A DNA stretch of 35,550 nucleotides from Anaerolineae bacterium (GTDB lineage Bacteria > Chloroflexota > Anaerolineae > Anaerolineales > DRMV01): the NCBI GenBank assembly GCA_011176535.1, contig DUEP01000058.1, positions 1 to 35,550 on the forward strand, written 5' to 3'. This document shows, piece after piece, positions 13,722-35,059 of the stretch; the stretch's first letter is position 1; each line of letters opens with the position of its first letter. The translations under genes and the position numbers were made by a program. Below the pieces are notes generated by a model that saw only the letters and a list, made by a program, of their open reading frames with translations, did not search any database and was not told the DNA's origin.

Positions 13722-14771
13722 ATGGACTGGATCGATTTGCGCTCGGATACCGTAACCTGGCCCACTCCGGCCATGCGTGAGGCCATGGCGCGCGCGGCCG
13801 TAGGAGACGATGTGTACGGCGAGGACCCGACGATCCATCGCCTGGAAGCGCGGGCCGCTGAGTTGACGGGTAAAGAGGCCTGCCTGTTTGTGGCTTCGGG
13901 CACCATGGGCAACCTGGTCGCGGTGTTCACCCATTGTCAGCGGGGAGATGAGGTGATTTTGGGCGACAAGGCCCACATGTTTGTCAACGAAGGTGGCGGT
14001 ATGGCGGCGCTGGGGGGCGTGCATCCCCATCCGGTGCCTAACCGCGCCGACGGCGGCCTGGATATGGACGCGGTGCAGGCCGCCTTGCGCGATCCGCACA
14101 ACCCTCATCACCCCCGCTCGCGTCTGGTGACCCTGGAGAACACCCACAATATTTGCGGCGGTGTGGCCGTGCCCCTGGAACACATGCGTGAGGTGGCCGA
14201 CTGGGCGTACGCCCACGGCCTGTCCGTCCATCTGGACGGCGCGCGGCTGTTCAACGCGGCCCTGGCTTTGGGCGTCCCAGCGCGCGAGGTGTGCGCTCCT
14301 GTGGATTCGGTGATGTTTTGCCTGAGCAAAGGGCTGAGCGCACCGGTGGGGTCGCTGCTCTGCGGTTCGGCGGCCTTCATCGCCGAGGCCCGCCGCTGGC
14401 GCAAGATGGTGGGCGGCGGGATGCGCCAGGTTGGCGTGCTGGCGGCAGCGGGTTTGGTGGCCCTGGAGGAAATCCTCCCCCGGTTGGCCGAGGACCATCG
14501 CCGGGCGCGACAACTGGCTCAGGGGTTGCAGCAAATCCCGGGCGTGTCTCTGGATTTTGGGCTGCCCCAGACCAACATGGTCTATTTCTCCCTCACCGAG
14601 GAGGTGCCCTGGGATGCCGCTGAGGTGGCGCGCCGTTTGGAGGCCCGGCGGATCAAAGTCGATGTGGAAGGCCCCCGCCGGTTTCGCCTGGTGACCCACT
14701 ACTGGATTGACGATCAGGCGGTCGAAACCGTGATGCAGGCCTTCCAAGAGGTGTTGGGAACCCGGCCCTGA
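13722..14771 (+). CDS. ltaE: Low-specificity L-threonine aldolase
   Basis: A PLP-dependent fold-type I enzyme splitting L-threonine or L-allo-threonine into glycine and acetaldehyde. The product is 349 aa. It opens with the family start [16 protein letters not shown]. It has the cofactor-stacking His (GDKAHMF, His85), [12 protein letters not shown] with the PLP-pyridine Asp, and the Schiff-base lysine in [12 protein letters not shown] (Lys203). The C-terminal domain is complete. A strong ribosome site (aaggagga) precedes the ATG. It is separated from the pseudouridine synthase by 93 bases without a clear terminator. A related beta-eliminating enzyme is possible, but the motif set is that of threonine aldolase. 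Confidence 0.93.
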
Positions 14772-19424: not shown

Positions 19425-20539
19425 GCACGGTGAGTCGCTACACTGTGGTAGGCGCTGGGCATGGCGGCAAAGCCATGGCCGCCCACCTGGCGCTGATGGG
19501 GTTTGAGGTCATGCTGTACAACCGCACCCCGGCCAACATTGCCGGCATTCAGGCCCGGGGGGGCATTGAACTGCTCTCGCCGGAGGGAGGGGGCTCCGGC
19601 TTTGGGCGTCTGGTCAAGGCCACCAGCGACATCGGCGAGGCCGTGCGCTTTGGCCAGGTCATCATGGTCGTGGTGCCCTCCAACGCCCATCGGCCGCTGG
19701 CGGCCCAAATGGCTCCCCATCTGCAGGCCGGGCAAATCGTGGTGCTGCATCCTGGGCGCACCTTTGGGGCGTTGGAGTTTCGCCACATCTTGCGTCAACA
19801 GGGCGTGGGGGGAGGGGTGCTGGTAGCCGAAGCGCAGACCTTTATCTACGCCTCGCGCTCCGAGGGTCCGGCCCAGGCGCGGATTTTCCGTGTCAAAGAG
19901 GCGGTGCCTCTGGCGGCTTTGCCCGCCACCGACACGCCGCGCGTGTTGGAGGCGCTGCGCCCGGCTTACCCCCAATTCATCGACGGTGTGGATGTGCTTC
20001 ACACCGGGCTGAACAACATTGGCGCCATCTTTCATCCTACCATCACCCTGCTCAACGTCGGCTGGATCGAGGCCACCGGCGGCGAGTTTCAGTTTTATCT
20101 GGACGGCGTGACGCCTACGGTGGCCCGCATCATGGAGGTCATCGACCGCGAGCGAGTGACCGTGGCAGCGGCGTTGGGCGTGCGGGCCATCACCGCCCGC
20201 GCGTGGTTGCAGATGGCCTACGACGCGCGGGGGAACAACCTCCACGAGGCCATTCACAACCAGCCGGGATACCGCGGCATCAAAGCGCCTTCCACCTTGC
20301 AGCACCGCTATTTGCTGGAAGATGTGCCCATGAGCCTAGTACCCATTGCCAACCTGGGGCAACGCTACGGCGTCTCGGTGCGCGGCATGGAGAGTTTCAT
20401 CCGCCTGGCCAGCATCGCCCACGGCACGGATTACTGGCGACGGGGTCGCACCCTGGAGCGACTGGGCATCGAGCACCTCAGCGTGAGCGAGTTGCAGCGC
20501 TATGTGCGCGAAGGGGTGTGGGACGCGAATTTGTGGTAA
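19421..20539 (+). CDS. NAD(P)-dependent octopine/nopaline-type dehydrogenase
   Basis: A 372-aa protein. The N-terminus has the dinucleotide loop VVGAGHGGKAMA (Gly11-x-Gly13-x-x-Gly16). The second half is the all-helical octopine dehydrogenase C-terminal domain with the conserved segment NNIGAIFHPTITLLN (His205 is the likely catalytic His). Known relatives reductively join an amino acid to a 2-oxo acid or run the reverse oxidation; other relatives act on hydroxy or keto acids. The substrate is unknown here. Its start overlaps the ATP-grasp stop by four bases, indicating coupled translation, and no internal lesion is seen. It is intact while the two upstream genes are broken. No clear terminator follows. 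Confidence 0.85.
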   Translation: MSTVSRYTVVGAGHGGKAMAAHLALMGFEVMLYNRTPANIAGIQARGGIELLSPEGGGSGFGRLVKATSDIGEAVRFGQVIMVVVPSNAHRPLAAQMAPHLQAGQIVVLHPGRTFGALEFRHILRQQGVGGGVLVAEAQTFIYASRSEGPAQARIFRVKEAVPLAALPATDTPRVLEALRPAYPQFIDGVDVLHTGLNNIGAIFHPTITLLNVGWIEATGGEFQFYLDGVTPTVARIMEVIDRERVTVAAALGVRAITARAWLQMAYDARGNNLHEAIHNQPGYRGIKAPSTLQHRYLLEDVPMSLVPIANLGQRYGVSVRGMESFIRLASIAHGTDYWRRGRTLERLGIEHLSVSELQRYVREGVWDANLW

Positions 20540-20578
20540 GGGCAGGGGGCGAGGGTCTTTGCCTTTCCTCTAAGCCCT

Positions 20579-20612
20579 GCAGGGGCGCGGAGAGGTGACG
20601 GATCGCCCCTGC
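20579..20612. repeat. Inverted repeat after the opine-dehydrogenase gene
   Basis: GCAGGGGCG (20579-20587) and CGCCCCTGC (20604-20612), 16-base spacer, 9-bp perfect stem. No T tract follows, so it is not a standard intrinsic terminator. Confidence 0.5.
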
Positions 20613-20644
20613 GTAACCATGCGACTTCCTTCCATACGGTTCGC

Positions 20645-20680
20645 CACGGCCGGCGTGACGACCACGGCCGGCGTGACGAC
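20645..20680. repeat. Exact tandem duplication of an 18-base unit
   Basis: CACGGCCGGCGTGACGAC occurs twice back to back (20645-20662 and 20663-20680) in the gap before the recombinase-like gene. It could be two copies of a binding site or a simple slippage duplication. Confidence 0.7.
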
Positions 20681-20726
20681 GAGCCGCCTGAAGGTGCCTC
20701 CTATTTTCGCCCCTGGGGATGAGAGG

Positions 20727-20755
20727 CTGTCAAAAAGGCAAATTTGCGATATAAT
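20727..20755 (+). promoter_or_regulatory. Promoter of the recombinase-like gene
   Basis: CTGTCA (20727-20732), a 17-base spacer and a perfect TATAAT (20750-20755). The predicted start is near 20762, about 40 bases before the ATG at 20803. Confidence 0.7.
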
Positions 20756-20802
20756 TTGGACGCATTGGGCCGCGATGAGACAGGCTGTTTGGAGGTTGAC
20801 AA

Positions 20803-21729
20803 ATGGAAGAGCAGATTCGGGCGTTCATTCAATCGTTGGCAGACTCAGGGGCCTATAGTGAGGGTACCTTGGCCTCATATCGGGGCGACCTGCGGAAGGG
20901 TTGGCAGATGATGTCCCGGGCGAAGGGTCAAACCGTTGGGCTGGACGATCTTTCGCCGGAACTCATCCTGTCCATGATCCAGGCGGAAATCGAGGCAGGG
21001 CGCAAGCGGAGCACCATCCAGCGCCGGGTGGCCTCCTGGCGGGCCTTTGACCGTTTTTTGTTGCAATATGGCCTGCGCACGACCTCGTTCATGCCCCCTC
21101 GCGAGGCCTTAATCGCCTTATGGCAAAAGGCGGCGGAGCCCGCTCATGCGGCCTGCCTGAGCAGCGAGCAACTGCAGCAACTTTGGACGACCTTATTGCA
21201 GTCCACCCAGCGACGGGCCATCCGCGATTTGGCGCTGATTGCCTTGTTTGTCGAATGGGGCTTTCCCAGCCAAATGGTGATTCAACTGCGGGTGGAGCAT
21301 GTGGATCTGGAGCGCCGGGTGGTCTATGTGCCCCAGCCGGTGATGCGTCTGGAGGAGTTCCCGCTGGAAGAGTCCTACGAACCGTTGCGGCGCTATTTGG
21401 AGCGGGGGCGGCCGGAATTCGACCCCAAGCCTGGGGAAAACGCCCTGTTCGTCAGTCAGTTGGGCCGGGGCCTGAGCCGTCAGGGCGTCTGGCAATTGAT
21501 TCAGGGATGGGGCGCGGCGGCTGGCCTGTCCATCAATATGACGCCCCGCGTGCTGCGCAACACCGCCGTGTTGCGCATGATCCGCCGGGGCGAACCTCTG
21601 GAGCGCATCCAGACGGCCCTGGGGCACGCCAACCCCATTTCCACCTCCGTGCTGTTGCGCCGGGTAGAGCGCCTTTGCCGCGCTTTGCCCATGCCCATCA
21701 TCCCCCGCCTGCCTGAAGAGGCACGCTAA
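20803..21729 (+). CDS. Tyrosine-recombinase-fold protein lacking catalytic residues
   Basis: A 308-aa protein with the two-part layout of XerC/XerD. Residues 1-110 are a SAM-like core-binding domain (TLASYRGDLRKGW; STIQRRVASWRAFDRFL) and about 120-300 match the catalytic domain. The active-site pattern is mostly lost. The first Arg of G-x-R-x-S-E is Pro155 (GFPSQ). The H-x-x-R-H box reads RVLRN (Arg249, Arg252, Asn253), keeping only Arg252. LGH is kept at 273-275, but the nucleophilic Tyr position holds Leu285. The frame is intact with a good promoter and ribosome site (ggagg, seven bases before ATG), so this is a maintained gene rather than a wreck. It is likely a DNA-binding or structural protein, not an active integrase. 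It lies 19 bases before the purine phosphorylase gene. Confidence 0.75.
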   Translation: MEEQIRAFIQSLADSGAYSEGTLASYRGDLRKGWQMMSRAKGQTVGLDDLSPELILSMIQAEIEAGRKRSTIQRRVASWRAFDRFLLQYGLRTTSFMPPREALIALWQKAAEPAHAACLSSEQLQQLWTTLLQSTQRRAIRDLALIALFVEWGFPSQMVIQLRVEHVDLERRVVYVPQPVMRLEEFPLEESYEPLRRYLERGRPEFDPKPGENALFVSQLGRGLSRQGVWQLIQGWGAAAGLSINMTPRVLRNTAVLRMIRRGEPLERIQTALGHANPISTSVLLRRVERLCRALPMPIIPRLPEEAR

Positions 21730-21748
21730 CCTTTTTTCAGGAGAACGC

Positions 21749-22621
21749 ATGACCATGTCTTTGTCCAAACCCGAGTATTTCACCCTGGCCGACATCGATG
21801 AGGTGGTCTCGGCCATCCGTGAGCGTACGGCCTTTCAGCCGCGGATTGGCATGATCTTGGGGTCCGGGCTGGGCGCCCTGGCCGACGCTGTGGAAGCCGA
21901 GGCCGTCATTCCCTATCAGGACCTCCCTTACTGGCCGGTCTCCACGGTGGCCGGACATGCCGGACGGCTGATTTTTGGCCGTGTGGAGGGGCAGCCGGTG
22001 ATGGTGATGCAGGGGCGGGCCCACTACTACGAAGGCTACCCCATGGCTCAGGTGACCCTCCCCGTGCGGGTGATGCAGCGGCTGGGCGTGGAGATGCTCA
22101 TCGTGACCAACGCAGCCGGTGCGGTCAACCCCAAGTTTCACCCCGGCGACCTGATGCTCATCGTGGACCATCTGAACCTGATCGGCATGGCCGGCCCCAA
22201 CCCCTTGCGTGGGCCAAATCTGGACGCTTTTGGCCCCCGTTTTCCCGATATGAGCCAGGCCTACGATCGGGCGCTCATGGCCCTGGCCCGAGAGGTGGCC
22301 CGCGAAGAAGGTTTGCCCTTGCGGGAAGGGGTGTATGTGAGTCTGGCCGGGCCTTCCTTTGAGACCCCTGCGGACCTGCGTTTCCTGCGGGCCATAGGCG
22401 TGGATGCCGTGGGGATGTCCACCGTGCCCGAAGTCATCGTGGCCCGACATGGTGGCACGCGGGTGCTGGGGATCTCCGGCATCAGCAACAAGGCCAACCT
22501 GGATGGCAACACGGTGACCACCCACGAAGAGGTGCTGGCTGCCGGAAGGTTGATCGCCCCGCGATTGACCACCCTGGTGCGGGGTGTGTTGCGTCGCCTG
22601 GAGGCCTCCGGGGCCGCCTGA
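21749..22621 (+). CDS. Purine nucleoside phosphorylase (trimeric, 6-oxopurine type)
   Basis: Cleaves inosine and guanosine with phosphate to the free base and ribose 1-phosphate, in purine salvage. The product is 290 aa. Family motifs in order: the phosphate-binding GSGLG near 39, VAGHAGRL, RAHYYEGYP, VTNAAGAVNP, then GMSTVPEVIVARH and the base-binding GISNKAN. The Asn in SNKA favours 6-oxopurines over adenosine or methylthioadenosine, where an Asp usually stands. The ATG at 21749 has a ribosome site (aggag) five bases upstream; a second ATG two codons later is possible. It may be co-transcribed with the recombinase-like gene. Confidence 0.94.
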   Translation: MTMSLSKPEYFTLADIDEVVSAIRERTAFQPRIGMILGSGLGALADAVEAEAVIPYQDLPYWPVSTVAGHAGRLIFGRVEGQPVMVMQGRAHYYEGYPMAQVTLPVRVMQRLGVEMLIVTNAAGAVNPKFHPGDLMLIVDHLNLIGMAGPNPLRGPNLDAFGPRFPDMSQAYDRALMALAREVAREEGLPLREGVYVSLAGPSFETPADLRFLRAIGVDAVGMSTVPEVIVARHGGTRVLGISGISNKANLDGNTVTTHEEVLAAGRLIAPRLTTLVRGVLRRLEASGAA

Positions 22622-22710
22622 AGATCGGGTGCTTCAACCGCTCCCCCCTGCAAACCCTGCCGTTGGCCTGCGCCCCCGCGCCAACGGAGCCCCCTTCTGT
22701 TGAGGATGTG

Positions 22711-23400
22711 ATGCAAGCCCTGTTGCGTTTTCTGAAAACCTATGAGTTGGGCATTTACCTGCTTTTGGGGGTGGCGTTTTTGCTCTATTTTCGCCGGCTG
22801 CTTTTGGCCTGGCGGGTGTGGCAGGGGGCCTTGTTTGGTTTGGAGCGTGAAGAAGCCGAACGCCGTTTGCGCGGCGCTTTTCTGGGCGTGGTGCTGAGCG
22901 TGGGCTTGATGTTGACCACCTTTGCCCTGGTGACCTTTGCCACGCCGGTGCAGACCGGCCCGGTGGTCCTGCCCACGGCCACGCTGGATCTGCTGGCCAC
23001 GACGCCGCCTGAGGAGGCGTCTCCCACCCCTGAGGGCACGCCTACCCCTTTGCCCACCCCAGTGCTGGACACCGGAGGGTGTGTGCCGGATCAGGTGTTC
23101 ATCGCCTCCCCCCAGACCGGGGACACCATTTCCGGGGAGGTGACCATTGAGGGCACGGCGAACATCCCCAATTTCGGCTTTTACAAGGTGGAGTTCGCCC
23201 TGGCCAGCGAAGCCCTTTTCCTGACCATTGGCGTCGGACGAGTCCCGCGGGTCCAGGAACCCCTCATTGAGGGCTGGGACACCTCCCGAATCCCCCCCGG
23301 CGATTATGTCATCCAGTTGGTGGTCACCGACAATCAGGGGCAGGCCCTGCCGCCCTGTCGGGTGCGCGTGCACATTGCGGCTCCGCCCGCTCAACCGTAA
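22711..23400 (+). CDS. Membrane protein with Pro/Thr linker and extracytoplasmic Ig-like domain
   Basis: A protein of about 229 aa from the ATG at 22711 (an in-frame TTG at 22663 would add 16 residues). It has two predicted transmembrane helices near the N-terminus (YELGIYLLLGVAFLLYF; GAFLGVVLSVGLMLTTFALV) separated by a short charged loop. A Pro/Thr/Glu-rich linker (PTPEGTPTPLPTP) follows. The C-terminal part of about 100 residues looks all-beta and Ig-like (VFIASPQTGDTISGEVTIEG ... GDYVIQLVVTDNQG). The N-terminus must be inside for the linker and domain to be outside. The fold resembles domains that bind surface polymers. The specific role is unknown. It lies 89 bases after the purine phosphorylase and three bases before the acetyltransferase gene. 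Confidence 0.75.
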   Translation: MQALLRFLKTYELGIYLLLGVAFLLYFRRLLLAWRVWQGALFGLEREEAERRLRGAFLGVVLSVGLMLTTFALVTFATPVQTGPVVLPTATLDLLATTPPEEASPTPEGTPTPLPTPVLDTGGCVPDQVFIASPQTGDTISGEVTIEGTANIPNFGFYKVEFALASEALFLTIGVGRVPRVQEPLIEGWDTSRIPPGDYVIQLVVTDNQGQALPPCRVRVHIAAPPAQP

Positions 23401-23403
23401 ACC

Positions 23404-23940
23404 ATGATGAGCCCTCTGGAGATTCGCCCGGCTTTGGCCGCCGATATCCCTTATCTGGTGCGGCTGGATCACACCGTGGAAAGCACCCATGTCTGGCGTC
23501 TGGAGTGGAGCCACGGCGAAACGCTGGGCGCCAGGTTTCGTCCCGCGCCGCTCCCCCGGCCGGTGATCCTGCCGTATCCCTATGCGCCTGAGGCCTTTCT
23601 CGAGGACTGGCGGCGGTTGCCCGCGTTGTGGGTGGCCTTGCAAGATGGCCGCCCGGTGGGCTATGCGACCTTGCGCTGGTCGCCGGCGCCAGATGTGGCC
23701 TGGCTTTCGGACCTGGTGGTGGACTCTCCTTATCGCCGTCAGGGGATTGGACGGGCCTTGCTCCTGCATGTGCTCCACTGGGCGGCTCAACAGGGATACC
23801 GCCGTTTGGTGTGGGCGGCCTCCTTTCGCAATCACCCGGCCGTTTCCCTGGCCTTCCGGGTCCATTTGCACTTCGTGGGTTTTCAGCAGGCCTTCTTCCC
23901 CAATGGGGATACGGCGTTGTTTTTGGGTCGAGATGTGTAA
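23404..23940 (+). CDS. GNAT-family N-acetyltransferase
   Basis: A 178-aa protein with the GNAT fold. The acetyl-CoA pyrophosphate loop is RRQGIGRALL (about 115-124), preceded by the strand VAWLSDLVVDSPY. The N-terminus (LEIRPALAADIPYLVRLD) is the usual first strand and helix. Helix 4 and the last strands (HPAVSLAFRVHLHFVGFQQ) are complete. The acetyl acceptor is unknown. It is preceded by only three bases after the previous stop and followed by three before the next start, so it belongs to the same transcription unit. A second ATG one codon later is also possible. Confidence 0.85.
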   Translation: MMSPLEIRPALAADIPYLVRLDHTVESTHVWRLEWSHGETLGARFRPAPLPRPVILPYPYAPEAFLEDWRRLPALWVALQDGRPVGYATLRWSPAPDVAWLSDLVVDSPYRRQGIGRALLLHVLHWAAQQGYRRLVWAASFRNHPAVSLAFRVHLHFVGFQQAFFPNGDTALFLGRDV

Positions 23941-23943
23941 GCC

Positions 23944-25863
23944 ATGGTCTCCTGGCTTCTTTCCACTTTCCAGGCGCTGACGCCCATCCTCACGGCGGGA
24001 ATCGGGATTCTGGCCCTCTCGCTGTGGTTTTACACCCTGGCCTTCAACCTGCGCGATCGGGTGGCGCTGTCCTTTTCCCTGATTTTGGCCGCCTTGGTGC
24101 TGGTTTACGGCGGTGAGTCGCTGGGCGCGGTCGCTCCGCCTCAGGAGGCCGTCCCGGCGTTGCTGCTCAGTCTGTTGGGGGTGACTTTCCTGCCGCCGGC
24201 CTACCTGCATTTTTCGGATGCGTTGCTGGCCACCACAGGGCGTCCCTCGCGGGGGCGAAGACGCCTGTTGGTGCGTTTGTACTATGGTCTGGCGCTGGTG
24301 GGGGTGGCCGCCCTGGCCGCGGGTAAGGTGGTGCGTCTGGAATGGTCCCCCGACCCAGTGCCTCACCTGCCCGGCGCGGAGGGGGCCTGGGCGTTCGGGC
24401 TGTTCTACACCGTGGGCGTAGGTTGGGCCCTGGTGAACATCTGGCGGGCCTATCGCCGCACGGTGATGCTCACCAGCCGTCGGAGGTTGTTGTTCATCTT
24501 CTTCGGGGCGCTGGCGCCCGCCGTGGGCTCCTTCCCCCTGCTTACCCTGGGGGTGGATTGGGCGGCGCACCATCCGTTGTTCTTTTGGTGGCTGGCCACT
24601 GGTACGAACATCCTCATCAGCGCGTTGCTGGTTCTTTGGGCTTATGAAGTCGCCTTCTTCGGCACTTCCTGGCCCGACCGGGTGGTGAGGCTGCGTCTGT
24701 TGCGCTGGTTGCTCCGGGGGCCGGTCACCGTGGCCACCGTGTTGACCCTGACGACTTTGGTGCGCCGTTGGGGCGCCCGCCACGGGCAGGCGTATTCGGC
24801 CTTAGTGCCGGCGACCATGGTGCTTTCGTTCCTCTTTTTGGAGCATTTCATCGGCGTGCTGTTGCCCTACCTGGAAGACGCCATCCTCGCTTTAGAGGGC
24901 GGGGAGACGCTGCGCTTGTTGCGCGGGGTGGAAAACCGTATCTTCACCCGGAACGATTTGCGCCAGTTCCTGGAGGCCGTGTTGGCGGCCATCTGCGATC
25001 TCTTTCAGGTGGAGCAGGCCTTCATTGCGGCCACCACCGAAGGGGGGCGCCTGGAGTTGTTGAGCGAAGTAGGGGGCATGGTGGTGGCCTTGCCCGAACA
25101 GCCTTTGCAGGCTGAGCGCCTCGAGCAACGCGGTCGGATGGCTTTTTGGCGTTGGGATGGCTTCGTCTTGGTCCCCTTGCGGGCAGAGGATGGCACGGTG
25201 TTGGGGGTGCTGGGTTTCGCCGCCCCGGCGGCGATTCCCTGGGACGAAGAACAACATCAGGCCCTGGAGACCTTGGTGGAAAGGGCGACCATGGCGCTGG
25301 AGGATCAGCGTCTGCATCGCCAGTTGGCGGCGGCGCTGCAGGCTTTTCGGCAGCGCACGGACCTCATCCCCCGGCTGCGGGCGGCGGCCCGCTTTGACCA
25401 GCGCCAGGTGTTCACCCCGGTCGAGGCCTTGCCTCCCTCGGCCGAGTTGGCGCAGTGGGTCAAAGGGGCGTTGGCCCATTACTGGGGCGGCCCCAAACTG
25501 ACCGAGAACCCGTTGCTGCGCTGGGAGGTGGTGCGTCGCGCGGCCGAGGAACATAACGGCAATTTGATTCAGGGCCTGCGGGCCGTGCTTCGTCAGGCGG
25601 TGGATCAGTTGCGTCCGGAGGGAGAACGCAAGTTCACCACCGAGTGGTTGCTGTACAATATCCTTGACCTGCGTTTTCTGCAGGGGCGCAAGGCGCGGGA
25701 GGTGGCCAGCCGGCTGGCCCTCTCAGAGGCGGATTTGTATCGCAAGCAACGGGTAGCCTTGCAGGAGTTGGCCAAGGTGTTGTTGCACATGGAGCGTCGG
25801 GCCCGCGAGGAGTCCCCGTCTGGTTCCCCCCACCCCACGGAGGAAGAGCATCGTGGCGCGTAA
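23944..25863 (+). CDS. Multi-TM protein with GAF domain and C-terminal DNA-binding-like region
   Basis: A 639-aa protein. Residues 1-320 hold about eight hydrophobic segments, resembling the membrane N-terminus of 7TM-type sensor kinases. Residues of about 340-470 look like a GAF sensor domain (RQFLEAVLAAICDLFQVEQAFIA, VLGVLGFAAP, HQALETLVERATMALED). The C-terminal 130 residues are soluble and helical, ending in a possible helix-turn-helix (GRKAREVASRLALSEADLYRKQRVAL). No histidine-kinase H-box, ATPase, GGDEF or PP2C motif is visible, so it is not a classical kinase or cyclase. Inference: a membrane-bound regulator. It overlaps the start of the ftsK-like gene by 11 bases, suggesting coupled expression. 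The family is not recognised beyond the domains. Confidence 0.75.
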   Translation: MVSWLLSTFQALTPILTAGIGILALSLWFYTLAFNLRDRVALSFSLILAALVLVYGGESLGAVAPPQEAVPALLLSLLGVTFLPPAYLHFSDALLATTGRPSRGRRRLLVRLYYGLALVGVAALAAGKVVRLEWSPDPVPHLPGAEGAWAFGLFYTVGVGWALVNIWRAYRRTVMLTSRRRLLFIFFGALAPAVGSFPLLTLGVDWAAHHPLFFWWLATGTNILISALLVLWAYEVAFFGTSWPDRVVRLRLLRWLLRGPVTVATVLTLTTLVRRWGARHGQAYSALVPATMVLSFLFLEHFIGVLLPYLEDAILALEGGETLRLLRGVENRIFTRNDLRQFLEAVLAAICDLFQVEQAFIAATTEGGRLELLSEVGGMVVALPEQPLQAERLEQRGRMAFWRWDGFVLVPLRAEDGTVLGVLGFAAPAAIPWDEEQHQALETLVERATMALEDQRLHRQLAAALQAFRQRTDLIPRLRAAARFDQRQVFTPVEALPPSAELAQWVKGALAHYWGGPKLTENPLLRWEVVRRAAEEHNGNLIQGLRAVLRQAVDQLRPEGERKFTTEWLLYNILDLRFLQGRKAREVASRLALSEADLYRKQRVALQELAKVLLHMERRAREESPSGSPHPTEEEHRGA

Positions 25864-28057
25864 GCCCTCTGTGACCGAACCGACCGCCGAAGCCCCAGAA
25901 GAGGCGCCGGGCGCTGAGCGATGGGTGGACTGGTGGCTCAACGCCCAAACCGTGGCGTGGAATGCGTTGGGGTTGGCCGCCCTGGTGTGGGCGCTGGTGA
26001 CCTTGCTGGGCCTGCTCAACCTCACCCAGGGAAGTCTGGTGGTGCCCTGGGTGGTGGCCTTGCGTCGCCTGTTTGGCTGGGGGGCCTTTTTGGCCGTGCT
26101 GGCCCTGGGCGTGTTGGGGTTGACCTGGCTCTACCGCGCCACTGGGCGATCCCTGATCTGGCGCTGGGGGCGGGTGTTGGCTCTGGAACTGGCCGCCTTG
26201 GCCTTTTGCGGCCTGCTTTCCCTCCTGGGGGGGCACAGCCCCCTCCGGGCCGACCAGGGGCTGGATGGTGGCATGGTGGGCTGGGGTTTGGTGGAAGGGC
26301 TGGATTTGACCCTCACCCGAGGAGGGACCTGGCTGGTGTTGGCGGGGACCTGGCTTTGGGGGGTGTACCACGGGTTGGGACTGGAAAAGATTACCGGGCG
26401 TTTCCTGCGGCGGTGGAGCCTGGAGGAGACTCAGGTGGAGGTGCCCCCGGCTACGCCCATCAGTGTGGAAGGCGAGCCTATCTCGTCGCCCGCACCTACC
26501 CCGCGGTACCGAAAACCCGCCCCGCGACCCTCGGTGCCTTTGCGCGTCCCCGAAGTGAGCGAAGAGCGCGTCGCCCGTCCACGGGACGAACGCCTGCCCC
26601 CGTTGGACCTCCTGCTGGAAGAGCGGGCGCATCGCGTGGACGAGCACTACATCAATCAGGCAGCGGGGATCATCGAGAAAACCCTGGCCGACTTTGGCAT
26701 CCCGGCGCGGGTGGTCAATGTGCGGGTGGGGCCGACCGTCACCCAGTTTGCCGTGGAGCCGGGGTACCTGGAGCGTGAGGGGTCAGACGGCGAGGTGCAG
26801 CGGCAGAAAGTGCGGGTGGCGCAGATTTCGGCCCTGCGGCGCGATCTGGCCCTGGCGTTGGCCGCGGAGCGCTTGCGTATTCAGGCGCCTGTGCCCGGTC
26901 GGCCCTATGTGGGCATGGAAGTGCCCAACCCCAAGGCCGCAGCGGTGCGCCTGCGTCCCCTGTTGGAAAGCGAAGCCTTTCATCGTATCGGCTCCCCCCT
27001 GGCCGTTGCGCTGGGCCGCGATGTCTCCGGCCGACCGGTGGTGGCCGACCTGGCCAAGATGCCCCACCTGTTGATTGCTGGGACGACGGGTTCGGGTAAA
27101 TCCGTCTGTATCTCGGCCATCACCACTTGCCTGGTGATGAACAACACCCCCCAGGATTTGCGCCTGGTGATGATCGACCCCAAGATGGTCGAACTGGTAC
27201 GTTTCAACGGCCTGCCGCACCTGTTGGGCAAGGTGGAAACCGATATGGAACGCATCCTGGGCGCGTTGCGCTGGGTGGGAGCCGAGATGGAACGGCGCTA
27301 CAAACGGCTGGAAAGGGCCCGCGCCCGGGATATCCTGGCCTACAACTTGAAAATGCGTCGCCGCAAACAAGAGCCTTTGCCCTTCCTCGTGGTGCTGATC
27401 GATGAGTTGGCCGATTTGATGATGTCCGCCCCCGATGAAACCGAGCATAGCCTGGTTCGCCTGGCTCAGATGGCCCGCGCCACAGGGATCCATTTGGTGG
27501 TGGCGACGCAACGGCCTTCGACCGATGTGGTCACCGGGTTGATCAAGGCCAATTTTCCGGCCCGGATTTCCTTCGCTGTGGCTTCCAGCGTGGACAGTCG
27601 GGTGATCCTGGACACCCCAGGCGCTGAACATCTGTTGGGCCGCGGCGACATGCTCTTCCAGCCGCCCGATGCGCCGGCGTCCATCCGCGCCCAGGGCGCG
27701 TTGGTGACCGACCGGGAGATCGAGCGGGTGATCGCCTTCTGGCGACAGACCTTCCCTGTGGAAAGCGCCTCCTCTCCCTGGGAGGATTTGCTGGCCCAGG
27801 AGAAAGTCTTGCAAGGGTACGACCCTCTGATTGCCGAGGCAGCGCGCATTGTCATGCGCACCCAGCGGGCCAGCACCACCATGTTGCAGCGTCGGTTGCG
27901 CATTGGCTATCCTCGGGCGGCGCGGCTGATGGAGGAATTGGAGGCGCTGGGCGTGGTGGGCCCCGCCGGAAATGGCCGCGAGCGCGAGGTGCTCCTGGGA
28001 CCCGATGACGATTTCGTGCCGCCCGGCCAGAACCCGGAGGGAGAAGGGGGAGTCTGA
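25853..28057 (+). CDS. ftsK: FtsK/SpoIIIE DNA translocase
   Basis: A membrane-anchored motor that pumps chromosomal DNA through the division septum. The product is 734 aa, starting at GTG 25853, inside the end of the previous gene. Four N-terminal transmembrane helices span about 35-185. A linker of Pro/Glu/Arg (about 195-255) is shorter than that of E. coli FtsK. The alpha/beta motor has Walker A GTTGSGKS at 410-417 and Walker B VVLIDELADL (Asp517-Glu518). The C-terminal gamma winged-helix domain (RASTTMLQRRLRIGYPRAARLME) reads polar chromosome sequences. All parts are present, so function is likely normal. The acidic end is unremarkable. Confidence 0.95.
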   Translation: MARKPSVTEPTAEAPEEAPGAERWVDWWLNAQTVAWNALGLAALVWALVTLLGLLNLTQGSLVVPWVVALRRLFGWGAFLAVLALGVLGLTWLYRATGRSLIWRWGRVLALELAALAFCGLLSLLGGHSPLRADQGLDGGMVGWGLVEGLDLTLTRGGTWLVLAGTWLWGVYHGLGLEKITGRFLRRWSLEETQVEVPPATPISVEGEPISSPAPTPRYRKPAPRPSVPLRVPEVSEERVARPRDERLPPLDLLLEERAHRVDEHYINQAAGIIEKTLADFGIPARVVNVRVGPTVTQFAVEPGYLEREGSDGEVQRQKVRVAQISALRRDLALALAAERLRIQAPVPGRPYVGMEVPNPKAAAVRLRPLLESEAFHRIGSPLAVALGRDVSGRPVVADLAKMPHLLIAGTTGSGKSVCISAITTCLVMNNTPQDLRLVMIDPKMVELVRFNGLPHLLGKVETDMERILGALRWVGAEMERRYKRLERARARDILAYNLKMRRRKQEPLPFLVVLIDELADLMMSAPDETEHSLVRLAQMARATGIHLVVATQRPSTDVVTGLIKANFPARISFAVASSVDSRVILDTPGAEHLLGRGDMLFQPPDAPASIRAQGALVTDREIERVIAFWRQTFPVESASSPWEDLLAQEKVLQGYDPLIAEAARIVMRTQRASTTMLQRRLRIGYPRAARLMEELEALGVVGPAGNGREREVLLGPDDDFVPPGQNPEGEGGV

Positions 28058-28195: not shown

Positions 28196-28813
28196 GTGGC
28201 GTCGTCGTTGCAGGAGCCGGTCACTTTTACTGATCGGATGCGGGTGCGCTTCAAAGGTGTGTTGGACGCTTTTGGCGGTTTTTTCAATCGTCTGGGCATT
28301 CACCCGAACACGATGACCCTGTTGGGGCTGATCGGCAACACCCTGGCCGCGATTTGGCTGGCCCAGGGCCGGTTGCTGGAAGGCGGGCTGTTGGTGGTCT
28401 TCAGCGGGGCTTTTGACGCTCTGGATGGCACCATGGCGCGCTTGCGAGGGCATCCCACGCCCTGGGGCGCTTTCGTGGATTCGGTCACTGACCGGTACTC
28501 CGAGTTGGTCATCTTTTTCGGCCTGCTAATGTTTTACACTTCCCGGGGAGACCGCATGGGGGTATTCCTGGTTTATCTGGCGGCGGCCGGTTCGGTGCTG
28601 GTCTCTTATGTACGGGCCCGCGCCGCCTCCTTAGGATGGGAGGTCAAAGTGGGCTTGCTCACCCGCTTCGAGCGTTATCTGGTGCTGGCCCCCACATTGG
28701 TGTTGGGCATTCCCCTGGTGGGCGTGGGCATCGTGGCGGTTGGCGCCAACCTGACCGCCCTTCAGCGGATCTGGTGGACGCGCCGTCAGGCTTTGGCGGC
28801 AAAGGAGTGGTAA
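28196..28813 (+). CDS. CDP-alcohol phosphatidyltransferase (phospholipid synthase)
   Basis: An integral membrane enzyme that moves a phosphatidyl group from CDP-diacylglycerol to an alcohol. The product is 205 aa with about six hydrophobic segments. The catalytic signature D-x2-D-G-x2-A-R-x8-G-x3-D-x3-D is complete in DALDGTMARLRGHPTPWG followed by AFVDSVTDR. The acceptor (glycerol phosphate, inositol phosphate or other) cannot be told; related actinobacterial proteins use inositol phosphate. It starts at GTG 28196, five bases after a perfect ribosome site (aaggaggt). Its own promoter lies just upstream, and lgt follows without a gap. Confidence 0.9.
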   Translation: MASSLQEPVTFTDRMRVRFKGVLDAFGGFFNRLGIHPNTMTLLGLIGNTLAAIWLAQGRLLEGGLLVVFSGAFDALDGTMARLRGHPTPWGAFVDSVTDRYSELVIFFGLLMFYTSRGDRMGVFLVYLAAAGSVLVSYVRARAASLGWEVKVGLLTRFERYLVLAPTLVLGIPLVGVGIVAVGANLTALQRIWWTRRQALAAKEW

Positions 28814-29686
28814 ATGACCTTTCAAATTGGCCCTTTGACCATTCATCTTTACGGCGTGATCCTGATGTTGGGCGCGGTAGCAGCGGCTTATCTGGCCAGC
28901 CGCGAAGCCCAGCGGCGCGGGTTGCCCCCCGACTATGTGTGGGATGCGCTCACCTATGTGATCATCGGTGGCGTGATTGGCGCCCGCTTGTGGCATATCC
29001 TTACCCCGCCACCCTCCATGGTGGCCATGGGCATCACCACTCATTACTACCTCACCCACCCCTTAGAGGCCATCGCCGTGTGGAAGGGCGGTTTGGGCAT
29101 CCCCGGCGCCGTGATTGGCGGAGGGCTGGCGCTGTACCTGTATCTCAAAATCAAGCAACGCCATCTGCCGCCTTGGAAGCGCACTTCGTTTGCTCAATGG
29201 GCCGATGTGGCCGCGCCCGGTGTGGCCTTGGGCCAGGCCATCGGGCGCTGGGGCAACTATGTGAACCAGGAACTTTACGGCGCCCCGACCAACCTGCCCT
29301 GGAAACTGTACATTGATCCGCAATACCGACTGCAAGGCTATGAAAACATCGCCTATTACCATCCGCTGTTCCTTTATGAGTCCATCTGGAATGTGCTCAA
29401 CATGGGCCTGCTGTTGTGGGTGGCGCGGCGATACGAGAAGCGCCTGCGCCAGGGGGATGTCTTCTTGCTTTACCTGATGGTGTATGCCGTGGGACGCTTT
29501 TTCCTGGAATACCTGCGCCTGGACGCTTCGCGCATCGGCACCATCAACGCTAACCAGACCCTGATGGCCCTGGTGGGGCTGGGTGCGGCAGCCCTTTTCC
29601 TGGCGCGGCATAGCCGCTGGTGGCCCAGGCCGGCCCAGGAGGCTCCCCAACCGAAAGGGAAACGTCGTCGGCGGAGGAAGAAGTAG
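28814..29686 (+). CDS. lgt: Prolipoprotein diacylglyceryl transferase
   Basis: The first enzyme of lipoprotein maturation, adding diacylglycerol to the lipobox cysteine. The product is 290 aa with seven predicted transmembrane segments. It carries the Lgt signature GRWGNYVNQELYG (G-R-x-G-N-x-x-N-x-E), the N-terminal IHLYGVILMLG with the conserved Tyr-Gly pair, the GGLGIPGAVIGG loop, and HPLFLYES near 190. The C-terminus is a basic tail (KGKRRRRRKK). The ATG begins right after the previous stop codon, so translation may be coupled to the phospholipid synthase gene. Phosphatidylglycerol, the Lgt substrate, is a product of this lipid family, which makes the pairing sensible if the upstream enzyme acts on glycerol phosphate. 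Confidence 0.96.
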   Translation: MTFQIGPLTIHLYGVILMLGAVAAAYLASREAQRRGLPPDYVWDALTYVIIGGVIGARLWHILTPPPSMVAMGITTHYYLTHPLEAIAVWKGGLGIPGAVIGGGLALYLYLKIKQRHLPPWKRTSFAQWADVAAPGVALGQAIGRWGNYVNQELYGAPTNLPWKLYIDPQYRLQGYENIAYYHPLFLYESIWNVLNMGLLLWVARRYEKRLRQGDVFLLYLMVYAVGRFFLEYLRLDASRIGTINANQTLMALVGLGAAALFLARHSRWWPRPAQEAPQPKGKRRRRRKK

Positions 29687-33607: not shown

Positions 33608-33635
33608 TTGTCGCTGGCCCATTTCAAGGTAAAAT
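33608..33635 (+). promoter_or_regulatory. Promoter of tnaA
   Basis: TTGTCG (33608-33613), a 16-base spacer and TAAAAT (33630-33635). The predicted start near 33642 leaves about 38 untranslated bases. No tnaC-like leader peptide fits in this short leader. Confidence 0.55.
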
Positions 33636-33679
33636 GTGGCTCACAGCGCGTCTCATTCCTTGTGCAAAAGGAGACCTGT

Positions 33680-35059
33680 ATGGCTCGTTACATTCCCGAA
33701 CCCTTTCGCATCAAGATGGTGGAGCCCATTCGCCTTCCTCCGCCCGCCGAGCGCGAGGAAGCCCTGAAGCGGGTGGGCTACAATGTGTTCGGTTTGCGTT
33801 CTACCGAAGTGTTCATCGACCTGCTCACCGATTCCGGCACTGGCGCGATGAGCCAGGAGCAGTGGGCCGCCATGATGCGCGGCGACGAGTCTTACGCCGG
33901 TGCCCGTTCCTTTTACCGTTTAGCGGAAGCCATCGAAGAGATTTTCGGCTTCCGTTTTTTTGTGCCCACTCACCAGGGGCGGGCGGCGGAAAATGTGCTT
34001 ATGAGCCTGCTGGTCAAACCCGGGCAGTATGTGCCCTCGAACATGCACTTTGACACCACAGACGCCAACATCCGCGCCCAGGGTGGCCGCCCGGTGAACC
34101 TAGTCATCGACGAAGCCTTTGACCCTACCAGCTCCCACCCGTTCAAAGGCAACCTGGACATCGCCAAACTGCGGGCCTTTATCGAAGAAGCGGGCCCGGA
34201 AAACATCCCCCTGGGGATGCTCACCGTGACGAACAACAGCGGCGGGGGCCAGCCGGTGAGTATGGAGAACATCCGCCAGGTGAGCGAGGTGTACCACGAG
34301 TACGGCATCCCCTTCTTCATCGACGCCTGCCGGTTCGCCGAAAATGCGTATTTCATCAAATTGCGCGAGCCGGGCTATGCCGATAAATCGCCTCTGGAGA
34401 TCGCCCGCGAGATGTTCTCCTACGCCGATGGGGCCACTATGAGCGCCAAGAAAGACGCCATCGTCAACATCGGCGGCTTTCTGGCGATGAACGACGAAGA
34501 CCTCTACCGCCGGGTGTGCAACGAACTGGTGGTGCGTGAGGGCTTCCCTACTTACGGCGGCCTGGCGGGGCGCGACCTGGATGCCATGGCGGTCGGCCTG
34601 CGAGAGGCCCTGCAGGAGGATTACCTGGCCTACCGCTTGGGGCAGGTGCAATACCTGCTCGATCGGCTCAAGGCCGAAGGAGTACCCGTGTTGGAGCCTG
34701 CCGGGGGCCATGCGGTGTATCTGGATGCCAAGCGTCTGCTGCTGCATATCCCGCAAAGCCAGTTCCCCGGCCAGGCATTGGCCGTTGAACTCTATCGCGA
34801 GGGCGCGGTGCGTGGCGTGGAGATCGGCTCGGTGATGTTTGCCTACCCTGACCCCGATACCGGTGAAATGGTGTACCCCAAGATGGAACTGGTGCGCCTG
34901 GCCATCCCGCGGCGAGTGTACACCCAGAGCCACCTGGACTATGTGGCCGAGGCGGCGGGGCGCATTGTGCAGCGGGCGGCCGAGGTGCCGGGCTATCGCT
35001 TCACCTATGCGCCTGACCTCTTGCGGCATTTCACGGCCCGTTTCGAGCCTGTCCGCTGA
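33680..35059 (+). CDS. tnaA: Tryptophanase
   Basis: A PLP beta-eliminating lyase splitting L-tryptophan into indole, pyruvate and ammonia. The product is 459 aa with the family start [12 protein letters not shown]. It has [28 protein letters not shown] and the Schiff-base site MSAKKDA (Lys258). Residues that separate tryptophanase from tyrosine phenol-lyase favour tryptophanase: FDTT at 124-127, Ile in AVRGVEIGS where the lyase has Arg, and His450 in LRHFTARF where the lyase has Phe. It lacks the small insertion after the PTHQGR helix found in E. coli TnaA. The ATG at 33680 has a ribosome site (aaaaggag). Without a TnaC leader, induction by tryptophan through TnaC is not expected. Confidence 0.93.

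What the first reader, a model, noticed from the sequence alone, without database searches (positions are those of the whole stretch)
20803..21729. Maintained recombinase-fold protein without the catalytic tyrosine
The XerC/D-like layout is clear, but the first Arg, both His of the H-x-x-R-H box and the Tyr nucleophile are replaced (Pro155, Arg249, Asn253, Leu285). The gene has a perfect -10, a good ribosome site and no frame damage, and sits before a housekeeping gene. This suggests a repurposed DNA-binding role rather than a decaying integrase.
Basis: partly seen in the sequence, partly recalled or inferred. Interest (0 to 1): 0.5.

Follow-up and report, generated by a model that had tools for sequence, protein, structure and literature searches.

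The report
Conserved dead chromosome-resolving recombinase (XerD)
In a group of Chloroflexota bacteria, the gene for a chromosome-resolving DNA recombinase has lost its cutting residues but is kept intact next to the same genes, so it probably now only binds DNA, while a different, still active recombinase is present elsewhere in the genome.

Summary
ORF 20803-21729 is an intact XerC/D-fold protein (AlphaFold mean pLDDT 95) without R-I (Pro155), H-II (Arg249) or the Tyr nucleophile. The Tyr column is Leu284, not Leu285. The catalytic third His (H275) and Arg252 are kept, and Asn253 is not a catalytic position. Closest pairs show dN/dS 0.08-0.27, and 11 of 14 sit directly before the purine nucleoside phosphorylase gene. 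The gene is not a captured integrase. It is the positional orthologue of a class-wide XerD (91 of 118 syntenic copies are R-H-R-H-Y). In Anaerolineales it lies in a block that also carries ftsK with its gamma domain, in this window too (25853-28057). Catalysis was lost once or twice. The genome has another, fully catalytic Xer-like recombinase (group B). Most likely this is a domesticated, cleavage-dead XerD acting as a site-specific DNA-binding factor of the FtsK/chromosome-terminus machinery. The dead, conserved orthologue is well supported; DNA binding and the terminus role are inferred.

The parts
20803..21729 (+). Catalysis-dead XerD orthologue (pseudo-XerD), 308 aa
20727..20755 (+). Sigma-70-like promoter CTGTCA-17-TATAAT
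   Evidence: a TATAAT-like element is also present upstream of many orthologues
20738..20747 (.). 10-bp perfect palindrome GCAAATTTGC in the promoter spacer; possible operator, not found upstream of the orthologues
20791..20795 (+). Ribosome-binding site GGAGG, 7 nt before ATG
   Evidence: sequence
21265..21267 (+). Codon of Pro155 (R-I column; Arg in catalytic orthologues)
21547..21549 (+). Codon of Arg249 (H-II column; His in catalytic orthologues)
21556..21558 (+). Codon of Arg252 (R-II, kept)
21625..21627 (+). Codon of His275 (third catalytic His/Trp column, kept)
21652..21654 (+). Codon of Leu284 (Tyr nucleophile column; Leu in all 14 full-length family orthologues)
21749..22621 (+). Purine nucleoside phosphorylase (punA type), 19 nt downstream
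22663..23400 (+). Conserved neighbour (called NEXT here), hydrophobic N-terminal part and Ig-like C-terminus (weak Big_7)
23404..23940 (+). GNAT acetyltransferase, conserved neighbour
23944..25863 (+). GAF-domain protein, conserved neighbour
25853..28057 (+). FtsK DNA translocase with alpha, motor and gamma domains; gamma domain at 27818-27997
28196..28813 (+). CDP-alcohol phosphatidyltransferase, end of the conserved block
28814..29686 (+). Prolipoprotein diacylglyceryl transferase (lgt), end of the conserved block

Best explanation
SHOWN: the gene is the vertically inherited, syntenic orthologue of the chromosomal XerD-type recombinase of the class (Anaerolineae). In a clade of Anaerolineales it has lost R-I, the catalytic Lys, H-II and the Tyr nucleophile, while keeping an intact predicted fold, a promoter, purifying selection and its place in the xer-PNP-...-ftsK block. 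INFERRED: it cannot cleave or rejoin DNA. It still binds, as a C-clamp, sites related to the old dif/XerD sites and works there as an architectural or signalling subunit of the FtsK/chromosome-terminus machinery, in the manner of the SMC-unloading role of B. subtilis XerD at the terminus. Strand exchange is done by another, still catalytic Xer-like protein of the same genome (group B, G000:C29:2214-3191). Once group B was present, selection on catalysis in the old XerD was relaxed: some lineages lost the gene, others kept it dead.
For: Orthologues: 14 of 14 full-length family copies are P/S155, R/Q249, R252, H275, L284; the partial copy L025 shows only P155. Ancestor catalytic: 91 of 118 syntenic class copies and 29 of 30 phylum copies are RHRHY; catalytic orthologues L019 and L035 score 284.8 and 276.8 bits to the Xer model NF001399 (cut-off 279), the window protein 100. 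Maintenance: dN/dS 0.084-0.268 for the 14 closest pairs; residues fixed in the clade but different in catalytic copies (W128, E151, S218, W236, T254, A255, R258, L284; R286, R287, C292 and P301 also invariant in the clade). Fold: mean pLDDT 95.0; Foldseek aligns it over the whole chain to DNA-bound clamps (TM 0.66-0.74 with lambda Int and Tn1549 Int). Charge: pI 10.04, family median 9.41. FtsK gamma is encoded 5 genes downstream in the window and ftsK is in 9 of 12 Anaerolineales stretches examined. Group B: 31 of 31 examined are RHRHY, present in 13 of 18 family genomes. ScpA, hence probably SMC-ScpAB, in the own genome and 16 of 18 family genomes. SMC unloading by XerD: passages in PMC12322038, PMC8669397, PMC8357415; that it needs no catalysis is recalled.
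Against: No DNA binding, binding site, interaction or phenotype is shown. The role at the terminus rests on linkage to ftsK and on analogy. The linkage is not exclusive to the dead form: catalytic copies in f11 and f4 have the same block, so it could be inherited by inertia. In genus g2 the gene has moved away from PNP (3 of 14), and in L252 no ftsK lies in the 16.5 kb examined. The link between group B and loss of catalysis is loose: f4 and f59 carry B together with a catalytic copy, and G034 (96% complete) has a dead copy with no B found. The gene is absent altogether from many Anaerolineales families, so whatever it does is dispensable there.
Confidence: 0.42

Rival explanations
1. Dead half of a heteromeric recombinase: it pairs with catalytic group B (or another Xer) at an asymmetric dif-like site, holds one arm and activates its partner, which alone cuts; FtsK gamma may act through it.
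For: Group B is catalytic and present in 13 of 18 family genomes, and all three families with a dead copy (f1, f5, f9) contain B; ftsK with gamma domain in the same block; clade-specific invariant residues at the C-terminus (R286, R287, C292, P301), where Xer subunits contact each other (the contact role is recalled).
Against: B occurs in many families that lack this gene altogether, so B does not need it; 5 of 18 family genomes show no B, though these are among the less complete ones (62-82%).
Confidence: 0.25
2. Local transcription regulator: the protein binds its own promoter and tunes the xer-PNP transcript.
For: Directly upstream of PNP, 19 nt, own promoter with a 10-bp palindrome in the spacer.
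Against: The palindrome is not found upstream of the other orthologues; the xer-PNP pair is equally present where the recombinase is catalytic, and the gene survives in genus g2 away from PNP.
Confidence: 0.13
3. Slow decay: relaxed selection after replacement by group B, with no present function.
For: Sister families have no copy; long branches; several catalytic residues lost together.
Against: dN/dS 0.08-0.27, no frame damage in any of the 14, new residues fixed, Leu at the Tyr column in 14 of 14, fold kept.
Confidence: 0.08
4. Altered chemistry: it still cuts DNA with another nucleophile, using the kept Arg252 and His275.
For: R252, H275, S280 and T281 are invariant in the family.
Against: R-I, the Lys and H-II are gone as well; a hydroxyl residue at 280 and T281 are also conserved in the catalytic copies, so they are not a replacement nucleophile.
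Confidence: 0.03

Closest known systems
XerD / XerC-D chromosome dimer resolvases (TIGR02225, NF001399; E. coli XerD 1a0p)
   Same: Domain layout, fold, vertical inheritance, orthology through catalytic class members, linkage to an FtsK with gamma domain.
   Different: R-I, Lys, H-II and Tyr lost; scores 108.5 and 100 bits, far below cut-offs 329.6 and 279.
B. subtilis XerD as SMC unloader at the terminus (cited in PMC12322038, PMC8669397, PMC8357415)
   Same: A Xer-fold protein used as a site-specific DNA-bound factor; ScpA is present here.
   Different: B. subtilis XerD remains a recombinase; no SMC role has been tested here.
Streptococcal XerD-like protein (NF002685 / PRK02436), a non-catalytic Xer relative beside scpAB (recalled)
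   Same: Maintained Xer-fold gene without recombinase activity, with another recombinase (XerS) doing dimer resolution (recalled; XerS itself is described in PMC2731167).
   Different: Profile match only 18.5 bits against a cut-off of 178; different locus (PNP and ftsK).
Group C of this study: second non-catalytic Xer-fold family of Anaerolineae
   Same: Xer fold without the catalytic set, vertically conserved.
   Different: Separate orthologous group, much wider (316 of 396 class genomes), not found in the own genome.

Membership tests
XerC/XerD site-specific tyrosine recombinases | SAM-like N-terminal plus catalytic-domain fold | tested here: met
XerC/XerD site-specific tyrosine recombinases | Curated score cut-off of the family models | tested here: not met
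   TIGR02225 108.5 of 329.6, TIGR02224 102.5 of 335.15, NF001399 100 of 279 bits
XerC/XerD site-specific tyrosine recombinases | Catalytic R, K, H, R, H/W and Tyr nucleophile | tested here: not met
   P155, no Lys in the hairpin, R249, L284; R252 and H275 kept
XerC/XerD site-specific tyrosine recombinases | Orthology by position and descent | tested here: met
   Same xer-PNP order in 105 of 118 class copies, 91 of 118 catalytic; trees
XerC/XerD site-specific tyrosine recombinases | Resolves chromosome dimers at dif with FtsK | not testable with these tools
   ftsK gamma in the block; no dif site was sought, genome in 129 contigs
Mobile integrase (phage, transposon, integron) | Mobile context, patchy descent | tested here: not met
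   Conserved locus in 11 of 14 family copies and across the class
Streptococcal XerD-like (NF002685) | Profile score over cut-off | tested here: not met
   18.5 bits, cut-off 178
SMC-unloading XerD (works like) | Binds terminus sites and unloads SMC without cleavage | not testable with these tools
   Only the presence of ScpA was tested

The most novel reading that the evidence does not exclude
Anaerolineae run a chromosome-terminus machinery with live and dead Xer proteins side by side: a catalytic recombinase (group B), an ancient dead Xer-fold protein (group C, class-wide), and, in f1, f5 and f9, the old FtsK-linked XerD frozen as a cleavage-dead, site-specific roadblock or SMC/FtsK signalling factor. 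This would be a natural separation of XerD's architectural role from its recombinase role.
Probability: 0.2. Interest if true: 0.72.

Novelty: new variant of a known kind. Interest (0 to 1): 0.5.

Why it matters
It is a natural experiment separating the two jobs of XerD. Catalysis disappears while the protein, its operon and its link to FtsK remain, in a clade whose genomes hold another active recombinase. If the dead protein still binds at the terminus, it offers a clean way to study recombination-independent Xer functions such as SMC unloading or FtsK stopping. It also warns that calling such genes tyrosine recombinase XerD/XerC from domain hits alone would be wrong for whole families of Chloroflexota.

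Tried and rejected
Rejected: lone dead copy (14 of 14 full-length family orthologues share the state); captured integrase (class-wide synteny); decay (dN/dS 0.08-0.27); a palindromic operator shared by orthologues (found only upstream of L001). One or two losses of the Tyr is unsettled: a 74-row quick tree needs two changes; a 55-row and a 62-row careful tree (the latter without the long rows L018, L030, L142) need one, clade support 98/88 and 92/97. f5 shares W236, S225 and P278 with f1, which favours one loss. The association of group B with loss of A (the PNP-linked gene) is weak evidence: A (E<=1e-15) in 20 of 70 genomes with B (E<=1e-40) against 236 of 326 without, counted by hand from the two lists; Fisher p 1.3e-11 ignores kinship. 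At family level in the order, B is in 1 of 3 families with catalytic A and in 11 of 12 with dead or no A (read), p 0.08.

Led nowhere: the first ORF extraction with wrong strands for '-' loci (discarded and redone); the genome scan with alignment A1 (no conserved stretch); the SMC-unloading paper itself is not held; paper searches for inactive Xer paralogues gave nothing on point. One structure job, two Foldseek jobs and one paper search were left unused.

Full report
WHAT IS THERE. The ORF 20803-21729 (+) encodes 308 aa with both Xer domains. A promoter CTGTCA-17-TATAAT (20727-20755, the only such site in 20400-22800, 0.4 expected) and GGAGG at 20791-20795 precede it. PNP follows after 19 nt. 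R-I is Pro155, H-II is Arg249, the Tyr column is Leu284; Arg252 and His275 are kept; no Lys is left in the 170-187 hairpin (XerD 1a0p alignment).

WHERE IT IS FROM. The window is contig C58 of G000 (2.27 Mb, 129 contigs, 97.4% complete). Contigs of its family relatives are titled Anaerolineales / Chloroflexota MAGs (contig lengths agree with the genome search contigs, for example 21540 and 14125).

ORTHOLOGUES. Of 18 family (f1) genomes, 15 carry the gene at 39-44% identity to the window copy, 14 of them full-length in the stretches fetched, the window's included; G002, G007 and G009 show none. All 14 are non-catalytic: R-I is P in 12 and S in 2, H-II is R in 10 and Q in 4, R-II and H-III are kept in 14, Tyr is L in 14. 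The column after R-II is N in 9 of 14, so it drifts, and one copy (L005) has His there. None has internal frame damage. dN/dS (Nei-Gojobori) over the 14 closest pairs of the clade is 0.084-0.268, with dS 0.64-2.28, so partly saturated.

THE WIDER PANEL. I collected 118 copies from the relatives and class searches (further stretches). These are the better matches to the window protein, not a random draw. 91 are R-H-R-H-Y; 21 lack the Tyr; 5 keep Tyr but have another residue changed (L020, L120, L130, L142, L145); 1 is partial (L025). The 21 are the 14 of f1, two of f9 (L018, L030) and five of f5, which instead keep R-I and mostly H-II but lose H-III (Leu) and Tyr (H, I, Q, H, T). A sixth f5 copy (L241) reads the same way. 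PNP lies downstream on the same strand in 105 of 118; of the 13 without, six have under 900 nt of sequence left, L009-L011 (genus g2) lack it in 1.4 kb, and L091, L132, L142 and L143 lack it in 2.3-2.5 kb. In 15 of the 105 the gap is 600-980 nt and in one 2174 nt; small negative gaps come from mechanical start-codon choice. At phylum level 29 of 30 best orthologues are R-H-R-H-Y, one R-N-R-H-Y; PNP is adjacent only in the two class members, so the pairing seems to have arisen in the class.

NOT DECAY. Against 91 catalytic copies, the 14 family copies have fixed different residues (W128, E151, S218, W236, T254, A255, R258, L284) and new invariant ones (C118, R286, R287, C292, P301), while the shared core (T22, Y26, D29, R74, R141, D142, Y198, R203, R226, Q227, W230, R252, G274) is retained. 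The predicted fold is intact (mean pLDDT 95.0, pTM 0.79, 36-row alignment). Foldseek finds XerA, XerD and archaeal Xer first by E-value (TM to query 0.42-0.48, high rmsd, so the domain angles differ) and aligns over the whole chain to DNA-bound lambda Int, Tn1549 Int, XerH and Cre (TM to query 0.57-0.70). The protein stays basic (pI 10.04).

FTSK. An FtsK with alpha, motor and gamma domains lies at 25853-28057 in the window. I fetched 20 further stretches: 8 carry ftsK downstream in the same order xer-PNP-NEXT-GNAT-GAF-ftsK, including catalytic f11 and f4 and dead f9, f5 and f1. Within Anaerolineales it is 9 of 12 stretches with the window; L253 is cut by a contig end, L252 lacks it in 16.5 kb, L254 is the g2 form. 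None of 9 stretches from other orders has it. Of 18 family genomes 16 have a gamma-domain FtsK, 11 of them two. FtsK gamma is the known activator of XerD (established knowledge).

OTHER RECOMBINASES. A Pfam scan of the 18 family genomes and typing show group B, catalytic in 31 of 31 examined, in 13 of 18 family genomes including the own one (G000:C29), and in most families of the order but not f2, f3, f11. The dead families f1, f5, f9 all contain B; of the catalytic families f3, f4, f11 only f4 does. Class-wide the association is strong in number but confounded by kinship, and f59 has both.

MECHANISM. Shown: dead, conserved, syntenic XerD orthologue. Inferred: binding without cutting, at or near the terminus, with FtsK and perhaps SMC-ScpAB (ScpA in 16 of 18). 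Support from print is indirect: papers state that XerD unloads SMC at the B. subtilis terminus (passages read: PMC12322038, PMC8669397, PMC8357415, PMC11898615). The original paper is not held; that unloading needs no catalysis, and the streptococcal XerD-like precedent, are recalled. PMC2731167 and PMC3025954 (passages) describe the single-recombinase XerS system and dif predictions in three Chloroflexi. I found no paper on this dead family in the searches; that library is open-access only.

VERDICT. Dead, maintained orthologue of XerD: about 0.93. The specific terminus role: about 0.4. A new variant of a known kind.

Noticed in passing
L163, L180-L192, L197-L216; not found in G000: Group C: a second Xer-fold family, never R-H-R-H-Y in 34 of 34 examined (H-II never His, third His always L, V or I; a Tyr stands in the last column in 8). 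It is found in 316 of 396 class genomes at E<=1e-40 and in 89 of 101 relatives at E<=1e-12, but not in the own genome. In some f1 genomes it stands beside what look like lon protease or ABC transporter genes (read by eye).
   Followed up: partly
L023, L028, L031, L032, L033, L241: Family f5 has its own pattern of loss in the same gene: R-I and mostly H-II kept, Gly-His becomes Gly-Leu and Tyr becomes H, I, Q or T.
   Followed up: partly
L130, L142, L145: Copies in f23 and f52 keep Tyr but have lost other catalytic residues (K-S-R-H-Y, R-Q-R-N-Y, K-K-R-Y-Y): possible further independent losses.
   Followed up: no
window 25853-28057 and G000:C10:38808-38993: Two FtsK proteins with gamma domains in one genome, also in 10 other family genomes.
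   Followed up: partly
window 20644-20679: Perfect tandem pair of an 18-nt unit CCACGGCCGGCGTGACGA in the intergenic region upstream of the gene.
   Followed up: no
window 13722-14771 and 33608-35059: Two beta-eliminating lyase genes (PF01212) in one window.
   Followed up: no
L009, L010, L011 (genus g2): The dead gene is away from the PNP gene in this genus yet remains intact.
   Followed up: partly
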